From Cricetomys ansorgei (Eukaryota > Chordata > Mammalia > Rodentia > Nesomyidae): a DNA stretch of 64,000 nucleotides. The DNA is taken from contig JAMJFZ010003716.1 of assembly GCA_026225945.1 (NCBI GenBank), positions 49,199 through 113,198 of the forward strand, given 5' to 3'. How positions within the stretch are numbered: the first letter of the stretch is position 1; every line of letters begins with the position of its first letter. This document shows, piece after piece, positions 9,230 through 17,289 of the stretch. The position numbers and the translations under genes are program-made. The notes under the pieces are model-generated. The model was not told the DNA's origin and did not search any database. It saw only the letters and a program-made list of their open reading frames with translations.

Positions 9230-9579
9230 TGTTGGGAGCCGATATCATTCGCCATTAGAGGATGGCGCAGGCTCCCTGCTTCCTGGATTCCTCACGGGAA
9301 CGTTGTTTGCTTTTGCACATGCACTGGCTGTGTGGCTCAAGTTACCCACATGCTAATTGGGGTCGTAAAAACCACCGGTTGAAGGCAGTATACTAATTAG
9401 GTTCTGAAAGAGCACCAATTGGCAGGGAAAGACATTCCCCAGAGCTCTATATAGCCGGGGGGCTTCTAGGCTCGGGGTCTCTTTCCATCTGAAACCTAAA
9501 AGAGCTGTGAATAATAAACTTCCGTCAGAAGGATCCTGTTTTGCCGCGTCTCCTTTATCGGCGAAGGTAGCGCGCGACA
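9230..9579 (+). repeat. 5' LTR of provirus
   Basis: The LTR is 350 bp, begins TG and ends CA. It holds a TATA-like box at 9448-9453, a polyadenylation signal at 9513-9518 and a GC-rich U5 end (cgcgcgaca). It is identical to 16940-17289 at a constant offset of 7,710. Confidence 0.97.
9448..9453 (+). promoter_or_regulatory. TATA box of the 5' LTR
   Basis: tatata lies in the context ctctatatagcc, about 65 bases upstream of the polyadenylation signal, as expected for a short class II LTR. The identical box in the 3' LTR is at 17158-17163. A CCAAT-type element (caccaattgg) lies about 35 bases upstream. Confidence 0.75.
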
Positions 9580-9581
9580 AC

Positions 9582-9599
9582 TGGTGCCGAAACCCGGGA
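9582..9599 (+). other. Primer binding site, tRNA-Phe type
   Basis: tggtgccgaaacccggga begins two bases after the 5' LTR. It matches the complement of the tRNA-Phe 3' end, the primer used by mouse IAP elements, and not the Lys primer of MMTV. Confidence 0.9.
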
Positions 9600-9703
9600 A
9601 GCTGCCGACTCCTGGGCAGAGGAACAATACAAGGGACCCCCGACCGCTCATCGGAGAGGGATTCAGAACTGACGGCGCGTGGAGCCTAGGCACTTTCCTG
9701 CAA

Positions 9704-9709
9704 GGTATG
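9704..9709 (+). promoter_or_regulatory. Candidate major splice donor (caag/gtatgg)
   Basis: The leader contains a good donor with GT at 9705-9706, between the primer site and gag. It would pair with the acceptor ending at 15046 to make env mRNA. The ATG of the leader ORF overlaps it, so splicing would remove that ORF. Inferred from context only. Confidence 0.6.
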
Positions 9710-15166: not shown

Positions 15167-16706
15167 AGAACTACGTTGGGGTATAATGTCAACATTCCCA
15201 AAGCCTATGCCAGTTATGTTCGATACTCAAGTATTTCCTAGATTTTTTACAACAAATGAATCTTTAGGATTAGCAACTCTTCCTTTGGATGAAATTAGAG
15301 CAGAAATTCCAAACAATGTGAGTTGGTCTGTCAAAGGAAGTTTGTGTTTTACTGTTAATGAGAGTAATATAGAGTGTATAATTTTAAAACAATTTTCAAA
15401 AGCAAAAATAACGCCAAGAAATATTAAGAATAATACAATTCATAATACTACAGTATTGTTTGCCACGTGGCCAAAAACTGCTAGTGATTCAGAGAAAAAT
15501 CAAAAGTTTTATGCACCCAAATGTAAAAATCCACAACTTGATTATCAGTTAGTTTGGACTGGGTGTCAAGGTAAGGAGGTCCTTAAGATAAGTGATGAAT
15601 TCACTTTTTCACCATTAAGAGGGGCAGGAAATTATACTACAATGACTCCTACAGATGGGGTTAATCCTTTTGATATTTGGCTGTTATGCGGAAATAATGG
15701 AAGTTGTACTGATATTACCCCTATGTCCATGCTTTTAGGAGGAAGTTTACGTAAAGGACAAATTAATATTACATTGGCGTCCATTACGGAAGGCGGAAAT
15801 GATAAAATAAAACCAGTAAAAGATTTGACAACAATAGTAGAATTTGCGCCCACCCCAGTTTGTGTGTGGCCGCCATTTATTTGGGTTGTTTGTAATTATA
15901 ATAGCTGTTCATATGCCTCATGTTGGAATGCAAGTATACATAAAACAGCCACTGTGGCCCGAATGCCTCGATTTGTTCCAGTTCCTGTAAAAACGACCAG
16001 TTCCATAAATCTATTTAGACAAAAAAGGGACTTTGGTATAACTGCAACCATTGCCACTATTATAGCAGCTACAACAATAGCCGCTTCTGCTGCTGCTTCA
16101 ACATTGGCGTTGTCTGGTCAGGTACAGACTGCAGCCACTTTAAATAATCTCTCGGCCTCGGTCAGCCAAGCCATTGATGTCCAAGCCTCTGTGAACACTC
16201 AGATTAGAGGTGGACTCATGATTGTGAACCAACGTATAGATTTGGTACAAGAACAAGTTGATATTTTGTGGCAGATGGCACAACTGGGCTGCGAGATAAA
16301 AATGCCTGGGTTATGCGTGACATCCATTCTATATGAAAAGTTTACTTACGCGGCTAACCTGTCTAAAGAATTGTCTCAACAGCTACAGTACAATTGGTCT
16401 GCTGAATTTGATACAACAATGAGAAGATTACGGATGGCCATTATACAGATCAACTCCACTCGACTTGACTCTTCCTTAACCCAGGGGCTTTCTACTTGGT
16501 TTCTCTCTGCCTTTTCCTACTTCAAAGAGTGGGTGGGAGTCGGGCTTTTCGGCTGTATGACTCTGGCGGGAGTGTTAATTACATTTTGGTTGCTCTGCAA
16601 ATTTAATAGACAACATCAAAGAGATAAAATCATGATCACTCAAGCCTTACTCGCCATAGAACAGGGAGCATCCCCTCAAGCTTGGTTAAATATGCTCAAA
16701 CAATGA
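15105..16706 (+). CDS. env: Env glycoprotein (533 aa), intact, beta-type
   Basis: Surface and transmembrane subunits for cell entry. I start at ATG 15105, since the open frame upstream lacks ATG. Residues 1-20 are a hydrophobic signal peptide. The surface subunit (to 308) has about nine N-x-S/T sites. A furin-type site RQKR (305-308) precedes a glycine/alanine-rich fusion peptide (about 310-335). The ectodomain has a single C396-x7-C404 loop rather than the CX6CC of gamma-type Env, which is consistent with MMTV/HERV-K-like non-covalent Env. The membrane span is at about 477-497, followed by a cytoplasmic tail of about 35 residues. TGA is at 16704-16706. Frame and motifs look undamaged; function is untested. 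Intact env is uncommon in IAP-like elements. Confidence 0.93.
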   Translation: MWNPELWILTWILLNQQTQAEELRWGIMSTFPKPMPVMFDTQVFPRFFTTNESLGLATLPLDEIRAEIPNNVSWSVKGSLCFTVNESNIECIILKQFSKAKITPRNIKNNTIHNTTVLFATWPKTASDSEKNQKFYAPKCKNPQLDYQLVWTGCQGKEVLKISDEFTFSPLRGAGNYTTMTPTDGVNPFDIWLLCGNNGSCTDITPMSMLLGGSLRKGQINITLASITEGGNDKIKPVKDLTTIVEFAPTPVCVWPPFIWVVCNYNSCSYASCWNASIHKTATVARMPRFVPVPVKTTSSINLFRQKRDFGITATIATIIAATTIAASAAASTLALSGQVQTAATLNNLSASVSQAIDVQASVNTQIRGGLMIVNQRIDLVQEQVDILWQMAQLGCEIKMPGLCVTSILYEKFTYAANLSKELSQQLQYNWSAEFDTTMRRLRMAIIQINSTRLDSSLTQGLSTWFLSAFSYFKEWVGVGLFGCMTLAGVLITFWLLCKFNRQHQRDKIMITQALLAIEQGASPQAWLNMLKQ

Positions 16707-16927
16707 GACACTGTCTTGAATACTGGTACTCCTGAGGGCTCAGGATCCCATTGCACCAGGATACCACAAGACAGACCTGTGTTACCTCCCAGGGCTCGTG
16801 TTCCCATTGCACGGGATAAAGGTACACAGGGTCCTCCTCCATGTAACCTCCTTGATCGCTCAAAGCTGTTGGATCAGCGGGCTAGATCGGTAAATACATG
16901 GTTGCAGTTTGACATATTAATTAAAGT

Positions 16928-16939
16928 AAAAGGGGGAGA
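16928..16939 (+). other. Polypurine tract
   Basis: aaaagggggaga directly abuts the 3' LTR and would prime plus-strand DNA synthesis. The 233 bases between the env stop and the LTR hold no convincing gene. Confidence 0.88.
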
Positions 16940-17289
16940 TGTTGGGAGCCGATATCATTCGCCATTAGAGGATGGCGCAGGCTCCCTGCTTCCTGGATTC
17001 CTCACGGGAACGTTGTTTGCTTTTGCACATGCACTGGCTGTGTGGCTCAAGTTACCCACATGCTAATTGGGGTCGTAAAAACCACCGGTTGAAGGCAGTA
17101 TACTAATTAGGTTCTGAAAGAGCACCAATTGGCAGGGAAAGACATTCCCCAGAGCTCTATATAGCCGGGGGGCTTCTAGGCTCGGGGTCTCTTTCCATCT
17201 GAAACCTAAAAGAGCTGTGAATAATAAACTTCCGTCAGAAGGATCCTGTTTTGCCGCGTCTCCTTTATCGGCGAAGGTAGCGCGCGACA
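16940..17289 (+). repeat. 3' LTR of provirus
   Basis: This is the second 350-bp copy, following the purine tract directly and ending CA next to the target duplication. As it points toward Trim30 paralogue 1, whose 5' UTR/coding exon begins at 19098, it could serve as an alternative promoter; that is inference. Confidence 0.97.
17223..17228 (+). terminator. Polyadenylation signal in 3' LTR
   Basis: aataaa in the R region would end proviral transcripts; the 5' LTR copy is at 9513-9518. The inferred cleavage site is about 15-25 bases further on. Confidence 0.75.

What the first reader, a model, noticed from the sequence alone, without database searches (positions are those of the whole stretch)
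9230..17289. Apparently complete endogenous betaretrovirus with identical LTRs
Seen: two 350-bp LTRs without a single difference, a perfect 6-bp target duplication, primer site, purine tract and open gag, pro, pol and env with all catalytic motifs. Known: LTRs are identical at insertion and then diverge. Inference: a very recent insertion, possibly polymorphic or strain-specific and possibly expressed. Most class II copies in rodent genomes are broken, and IAP-type ones usually lack env.
Basis: partly seen in the sequence, partly recalled or inferred. Interest (0 to 1): 0.92.

Follow-up and report, generated by a model that had tools for sequence, protein, structure and literature searches.

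The report
Intact IAPE-like provirus beside TRIM genes
This is a young, apparently complete endogenous retrovirus of the IAP/IAPE kind, still carrying an envelope gene, that lies in sense orientation just upstream of an antiviral-type TRIM30-like gene in what looks like a mouse-like rodent; such proviruses are known, but this one and its address are worth recording.

Summary
Window 9230-17289 is a provirus with two 350-bp LTRs identical at 350 of 350 positions, TG...CA ends, a 6-bp target duplication, a primer site fitting tRNA-Phe, a purine tract, and open gag, pro, pol and env with slippery sites. Pol groups with IAP sequences (best named relative Nannospalax, 72%; mouse IAP 57%; simian type D 50%) and Env is beta-type, so it is best called an IAPE-like betaretrovirus, not type D. 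Identical LTRs, intact frames and CpG content (0.22-0.76 observed/expected against 0.14-0.18 in host stretches) say recent; with assumed rates the 95% upper bound is 0.26-0.8 Myr (LTRs plus frames) or 0.7-1.7 Myr (LTRs alone). Recent does not prove polymorphic: polymorphism, expression and infectivity were not testable. New member of a known kind; the most novel open reading is that its 3' LTR drives that TRIM gene.

The parts
9224..9229 (.). 5' copy of the 6-bp target site duplication
   Evidence: same six bases at 17290-17295
9230..9579 (+). 5' LTR, 350 bp; CCAAT 9415, TATATA 9448, AATAAA 9513
   Evidence: promoter and poly(A) roles inferred from motifs
9582..9599 (+). primer binding site fitting the 3' end of tRNA-Phe
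   Evidence: tRNA identity by recall of the tRNA-Phe 3' end, no tRNA sequence was searched
9865..9866 (+). predicted splice donor in the leader, upstream of the gag ATG
   Evidence: crude weight matrix written from recall; best-scoring in 9561-10400
9877..11814 (+). gag frame (ATG 9910): p10 matrix, capsid NTD and CTD, two CCHC knuckles, N-terminal MG, PTAP at aa 250
11652..12581 (+). pro frame: dUTPase, aspartic protease (DTGA), G-patch
   Evidence: in-phase heptamer at 11658 in the gag overlap
12551..15166 (+). pol frame: RT (YMDD), RNase H, integrase (HHCC, DD35E)
   Evidence: in-phase heptamer at 12569 in the pro overlap
15045..15046 (+). predicted splice acceptor for env mRNA (exon would begin at 15047)
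   Evidence: crude score, best in 14501-15110
15084..16706 (+). env frame (ATG 15105, 533 aa): SU, furin site at aa 305, TM with two-cysteine CX7C loop (beta-type)
16928..16939 (+). polypurine tract
16940..17289 (+). 3' LTR, identical to the 5' LTR
17290..17295 (.). 3' copy of the target site duplication
19106..19726 (+). host: RING + B-box coding exon of TRIM30-like gene A (ATG 19154)
   Evidence: RING 61 of 78 identical to the TRIM30 RING of PDB 2ecw
33813..34448 (+). host: SPRY exon, downstream of gene A and presumably its last exon
   Evidence: exon linkage inferred from order and strand
42259..42807 (+). host: RING + B-box exon of a paralogous TRIM30-like gene B
   Evidence: RING 55 of 78 identical to 2ecw; 83% DNA identity to gene A over 634 columns
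51895..52575 (+). host: SPRY exon, presumably of gene B
   Evidence: best match TRIM5
58111..58770 (-). host: SPRY exon of a third TRIM5-type gene, opposite strand
   Evidence: best match TRIM5

Best explanation
A recently integrated, apparently coding-complete endogenous retrovirus of the IAP/IAPE lineage. Shown: provirus anatomy with identical LTRs and target duplication, open gag/pro/pol/env, slippery sites, Pol grouped with IAP sequences, beta-type Env. Inferred from established retrovirology: transcription starts in the 5' LTR; a tRNA-Phe primes reverse transcription; Pro and Pol are made by two -1 frameshifts; Env is made from a spliced mRNA; an MG-led (probably myristoylated) Gag with a PTAP late motif buds at the plasma membrane with Env, i.e. 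an IAPE-like extracellular cycle rather than the intracellular cycle of env-less IAPs. The copy entered a TRIM5/TRIM30-type cluster by germ-line infection or retrotransposition, probably within the last few hundred thousand years. Whether it is expressed, polymorphic or replication-competent is unknown.
For: LTR identity and duplication; frames and heptamers; domains; motifs; coverage of relatives. Pol tree (25 chosen of the 120 listed of 486 found; midpoint root for drawing only): query with Nannospalax P0150 and unnamed P0151 (100/100), in a 17-row set (95/99) that holds mouse IAP and Chinese hamster CHIAP34, apart from SRV1/SRV4. Gag tree (25 of 88): 7-row set 100/99 with Nannospalax, Grammomys and Arvicanthis records named IgE-binding-protein-like. 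Env tree (28 of 62): 5-row set 100/100 with Psammomys and three unnamed rows. Three unnamed relatives whose longest contig has the same length, 7875 (P0065, P0151, P0003), are close in Gag, Pol and Env alike. Env model: 3 of 3 PDB matches at E<=0.001 are HERV-K Env. Age signal apart from the LTR pair: CpG observed/expected 0.76 in the LTR and 0.43, 0.22, 0.35, 0.49 in four internal blocks, against 0.16, 0.14, 0.18 in three host stretches.
Against: No record named IAPE was found to compare with, so 'IAPE-like' rests on clade, Env type and features. Identities are moderate (Gag 65-66% over 95-100%, Pol 72%, Env 62%). The Gag tree held no Swiss-Prot IAP Gag, and Cricetulus, Mus caroli and Mus pahari rows labelled IgE-binding-protein-like fell outside the query's 7-row set. 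Nannospalax is next to the query in Pol but outside its 5-row set in Env, so recombination is possible, though those records may be different elements. Among solved structures the best sequence match of Pol is 7sr6, named only 'Polymerase'. Open frames do not prove function. Gag carries a 29-aa tandem duplication not seen in five compared relatives. LTR CpG may be high from the start, and one internal block (0.22) is only slightly above the host.
Confidence: 0.87

Rival explanations
1. The insertion is older and fixed; the LTRs were made identical by gene conversion, or by the assembler copying one LTR into the other.
For: Zero differences in 350 bp is compatible with gene conversion, and no reads were available to exclude assembly collapse.
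Against: All four frames are open: under neutral decay the frames alone give a 95% upper bound of 0.4-1.5 Myr for the assumed rates. Internal CpG exceeds host CpG in four of four blocks. The duplication is perfect.
Confidence: 0.08
2. It is a replication-competent provirus, polymorphic in its species and still producing virus (the strong form of the reader's reading).
For: No broken gene found; young by three signals. A functional IAPE copy is reported in the mouse (PMC3197615, abstract and other passages).
Against: Nothing on expression, silencing or population frequency; missense defects cannot be seen; many young rodent proviruses are silenced (recalled).
Confidence: 0.25
3. It is an MMTV-like or type D betaretrovirus, not an IAP relative.
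For: Gag-pro-pol order, dUTPase-PR-G-patch and 6-bp duplication are shared by betaretroviruses in general (recalled).
Against: Pol groups with IAP, not SRV; the 350-bp LTR is far shorter than that of MMTV (recalled), and two frames that overlap the 3' LTR matched no Pfam family (16707-17063; 17118-17558); Env has no CX6CC. No row named MMTV, JSRV or HERV-K was in the tree.
Confidence: 0.04

Closest known systems
Mouse IAPE (IAP elements with an envelope; e.g. the functional IAPE-D copy)
   Same: IAP-lineage gag-pol with a beta-type env (PMC3758190, passages, says IAPE carry beta-type env); all genes open, as expected of the functional mouse copy (PMC3197615 and PMC2531183, passages)
   Different: Receptor (ephrin-A in mouse, PMC3236903, whole text) untested here; not compared directly with a named IAPE sequence, so sub-lineage distance unknown
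Env-less IAP retrotransposons (mouse IAP, Chinese hamster CHIAP34)
   Same: Pol 57% (P0196) and 60% over 85% (P0205) identical, same 17-row set; tRNA-Phe-type primer site (recalled for IAP)
   Different: This copy keeps a full env and an MG-led Gag; mouse IAP lost env and relocated its particles (PMC3197615, abstract)
IAP-lineage elements of Nannospalax, Psammomys, Grammomys, Arvicanthis
   Same: Among the best named relatives: Pol 72% (Nannospalax), Env 57% (Psammomys), Gag 60% (Grammomys) and 69% over 60% of the query (Arvicanthis)
   Different: Different hosts; those records are gene predictions, state of the proviruses not examined
Simian type D retroviruses (SRV1, SRV4)
   Same: Pol 50% identical
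   Different: Separate Pol set; type D viruses carry gamma-type Env (PMC3758190, passages), this one beta-type

Membership tests
IAPE / IAP lineage | Pol nested with IAP sequences | tested here: met
   (17-row set 95/99; 25 chosen relatives)
IAPE / IAP lineage | Gag nested with IAP sequences | tested here: inconclusive
   nearest named rows are labelled IgE-binding-protein-like, but no Swiss-Prot IAP Gag row was in the tree and some rows with that label fall elsewhere
IAPE / IAP lineage | tRNA-Phe primer binding site | tested here: met
   18 bases at 9582-9599 fit the tRNA-Phe 3' end as recalled; no tRNA was searched
IAPE | full-length beta-type env (two-cysteine TM loop) | tested here: met
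   CX7C, no CX6CC; both loop cysteines invariant in 26 of 26 aligned Envs; 3 of 3 PDB fold matches at E<=0.001 are HERV-K Env
IAPE | Gag built for plasma-membrane budding (myristoylation-type N-terminus, late domain) | tested here: inconclusive
   MG start and PTAP motif; targeting itself not testable
IAPE | direct similarity to a named mouse IAPE sequence | not tested
   no record named IAPE was listed (one search lists 120 of 486)
IAPE | ephrin-A receptor use | not testable with these tools
   reported for mouse IAPE (PMC3236903, whole text)
env-less IAP | env lost or degraded | tested here: not met
   533-aa env open and ending with its relatives
type D betaretrovirus | gamma-type Env with CX6CC | tested here: not met
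betaretrovirus (class II) in general | gag, pro, pol in three frames with dUTPase-PR-G-patch and 6-bp target duplication | tested here: met
recent insertion | empty allele in the species | not testable with these tools
   no host genomes; the in-window paralogue has no matching site
rodent Trim5-type cluster (host setting) | several RING/B-box and SPRY exons nearest to TRIM30/TRIM5 | tested here: met
   nearest among solved structures only. Trim12/Trim30 grouping is reported for Cricetidae and Muridae (PMC6677749, passages)

The most novel reading that the evidence does not exclude
A young, coding-complete retrovirus inserted into a TRIM cluster of the antiretroviral kind now affects it: its sense 3' LTR (TATA, CCAAT), 1.9 kb upstream of the start codon of a TRIM30-like gene, supplies an alternative promoter that splices into that gene (by crude score there is an acceptor before 19098 and a donor at 18815), so the virus raises or misregulates a restriction-factor-type gene. 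This would be retroviral tuning of a restriction locus caught at an early, possibly still polymorphic stage.
Probability: 0.1. Interest if true: 0.7.

Novelty: new member of a known kind. Interest (0 to 1): 0.42.

Why it matters
Env-carrying, infectious members of this lineage are described as the progenitors of IAPs, which are credited with about 10% of new mutations in laboratory mice (PMC3197615, passages). Coding-complete young copies elsewhere help show how often such elements keep the extracellular cycle. Its place inside a TRIM5/TRIM30-type cluster puts a young retrovirus next to genes of an antiretroviral family, where effects on expression can be measured directly. If only the provirus counts, it is a good but ordinary find.

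Tried and rejected
Empty site by paralogy: the flanks were joined at a single target site and compared with the rest of the window; beyond the flanks themselves only short or 69-74% matches were found, none spanning the junction, plus one 20-base match. The TRIM block is duplicated (matching stretches within 3.8-35.0 kb and 37.1-53.2 kb), but between 5.7 and 19.0 kb, where the provirus lies, only one 106-base match to the 38.9-42.2 kb stretch was found, so it cannot say whether the insertion preceded the duplication.

Truncated Env: a 119-aa frame follows the env stop in the same frame, which first looked like a cut-off tail. Rejected: Env ends within 0-4 residues of the ends of 8 of 8 relatives, and the 119-aa frame hits no Pfam family.

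Known RNA elements in leader (9450-10100) and 3' region (16600-17300): none at E 0.5. Related loci: Pol in viral contigs none; Env in viral contigs 8 pattern matches, none confirmed; Env in prokaryote genome contigs 18 pattern matches, none confirmed, as expected for a rodent element; LTR against phage records none. In the library of predicted viral structures the Env model has one match at E<=0.001, A0A5B8FBR4, unnamed there. By sequence, Env matches only two solved chains up to E 1, at E 0.0016 and 0.03, the first HERV-K. TrimCyp-like cyclophilin: none in the 30 scanned of the 39 host frames of 110 aa or more; shorter frames and the other 9 were not scanned, so not excluded. Host species was not identified; 'rodent' rests on the TRIM30 match and the host names of relatives.

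Paper searches: (titles and abstract starts seen). None of the listed titles or abstract starts reports this provirus or an intact IAPE-type provirus in a Trim5 cluster; one search joined Trim5, Trim30, endogenous retrovirus, insertion and LTR and found two papers, neither read further. The main text of PMC6677749 has 0 occurrences of 'endogenous retrovir', 'ERV' and 'LTR'. This is not proof that none is in print. PMC12575710 was seen in three passages and not used. PMC2279247 is not held.
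Full report
What is there. The stretch 9230-17289 is a provirus. The two LTRs (9230-9579, 16940-17289) align over 350 bases without a mismatch or gap, begin TG and end CA, and are flanked by the same six bases. The LTR holds CCAAT (9415), TATATA (9448) and AATAAA (9513) in a usual order.

Genes. Four long frames follow one another: gag 9877-11814, pro 11652-12581, pol 12551-15166, env 15084-16706. The gag/pro and pro/pol overlaps each have an in-phase slippery heptamer (11658; 12569), fitting two -1 frameshifts; two further in-phase heptamers lie in the gag/pro overlap. 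Pfam finds the matrix, capsid, zinc-knuckle, dUTPase, protease, G-patch, RT, thumb, RNase H and three integrase domains, and a TM match in Env just above its cut-off (30.2 against 29.6 bits). DTGA, YMDD, HHCC, DD35E and a furin site are present. Against relatives, Gag aligns over 1-634 with 3 of 7 and to residue 601 or 632 with 4; Env ends with 8 of 8 relatives to within 4 residues; Pol reaches residue 830-869 of 871 in 7 of 7; Pro is covered from residue 56 to 293-308 in 3 of 4. A crude splice score gives a donor at 9865 and an acceptor at 15045-15046, 58 bases before the env ATG (weights from recall).

Lineage. Pol finds 486 relatives; among the 120 listed, named ones include Nannospalax (72%), mouse IAP (57%), Chinese hamster CHIAP34 (60% over 85%) and simian type D viruses (50%). 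In a tree of the query with 25 chosen relatives, the query joins Nannospalax and an unnamed sequence (100/100) in a 17-row set holding mouse IAP and CHIAP34 (95/99), apart from SRV1 and SRV4; the root is drawn at the midpoint only. Gag groups with Grammomys, Arvicanthis and Nannospalax records named IgE-binding-protein-like, a usual label of IAP gag (recalled) (7 rows, 100/99); other rows with that label, such as Cricetulus, Mus caroli and Mus pahari, fall outside this set, and no Swiss-Prot IAP Gag was in the tree. Env groups with Psammomys and three unnamed sequences (5 rows, 100/100). Env has a two-cysteine loop with seven residues between, and no CX6CC, which is the beta-type as PMC3758190 defines it (passages); that paper states that IAPE carry beta-type env. 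The predicted Env model (mean pLDDT 71.3, under 50 in the fusion-peptide region) has three PDB matches at E<=0.001, all HERV-K Env, with modest TM-scores of 0.31-0.34 on the query. Gag begins MG and has a PTAP motif. Together this is an IAPE-like element: IAP-lineage gag-pol that kept env. It was not compared with a named IAPE sequence.

Age. With assumed rates of 2.5-6e-9 per site and year (recalled range), zero differences in the LTR pair give a 95% upper bound of 0.7-1.7 Myr; adding the open frames, with assumed indel rates, 0.26-0.8 Myr. CpG observed/expected is 0.76 in the LTR and 0.43, 0.22, 0.35 and 0.49 in four internal blocks, against 0.16, 0.14 and 0.18 in three host stretches. These agree on a recent insertion. 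They do not show that it is polymorphic. Gene conversion or assembly effects are not excluded for the LTRs.

A mark of its own. Gag carries a 29-aa in-frame tandem duplication between matrix and capsid (aa 103-160; Tandem Repeats Finder gives 10216-10385, 95% matches; over two full 87-base units 8 bases differ) that five of five compared relatives do not show; one of them has a different insert and one aligns poorly there. As the LTRs show no change since insertion, the differences between the two units suggest that the duplication arose earlier, in the virus lineage (inference). It would serve as a marker for sibling copies.

Setting. The flanks carry RING + B-box exons at 19106-19726 and 42259-42807 and SPRY exons at 33813-34448, 51895-52575 and, on the other strand, 58111-58770. 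The RING exons are nearest to TRIM30 among solved structures (61 and 55 of 78 residues identical); the two of three SPRY exons searched are nearest to TRIM5. This fits a rodent Trim5-type cluster, in which Trim5-clade genes have expanded by lineage (PMC6677749, passages read). The two same-strand TRIM genes lie in duplicated stretches. The provirus lies in sense orientation, its 3' LTR ending 1865 bases before the start codon at 19154. Whether it affects that gene is unknown; it is the most novel reading left open.

Verdict. Observation confirmed. Interpretation partly supported: complete and recent, yes; polymorphic and expressed, untested. New member of a known kind, with an unusual address. 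Whole-genome copy number and the host species could not be obtained because the genome search did not complete.

Noticed in passing
19106-19726, 33813-34448, 42259-42807, 51895-52575 (+); 58111-58770 (-): TRIM30/TRIM5-type gene cluster around the provirus; the two same-strand genes are paralogues (83% over the RING exon stretch, 68% over the SPRY exon stretch).
   Followed up: partly
10216-10389: In-frame 87-base tandem duplication (29 aa) in the Gag matrix-capsid linker, not seen in five compared relatives.
   Followed up: yes
16707-17066: A 119-aa frame directly after the env stop, in the same frame and running into the 3' LTR; no Pfam match.
   Followed up: partly
53146-53252: U6 snRNA-like sequence, 74 bits, full model length; gene or pseudogene not decided.
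   Followed up: no
4321-5709 and 37527-38898: 1.4-kb direct repeat at 91% identity within the duplicated TRIM stretches, more alike than the exons.
   Followed up: no
26772-27173: Frame with a sub-threshold intermediate-filament match (20.7 bits, cut-off 40), between the RING and SPRY exons of gene A: possibly the TRIM coiled coil.
   Followed up: no
27868-28149: 101-base tandem repeat, 2.8 copies, between the RING and SPRY exons of gene A.
   Followed up: no
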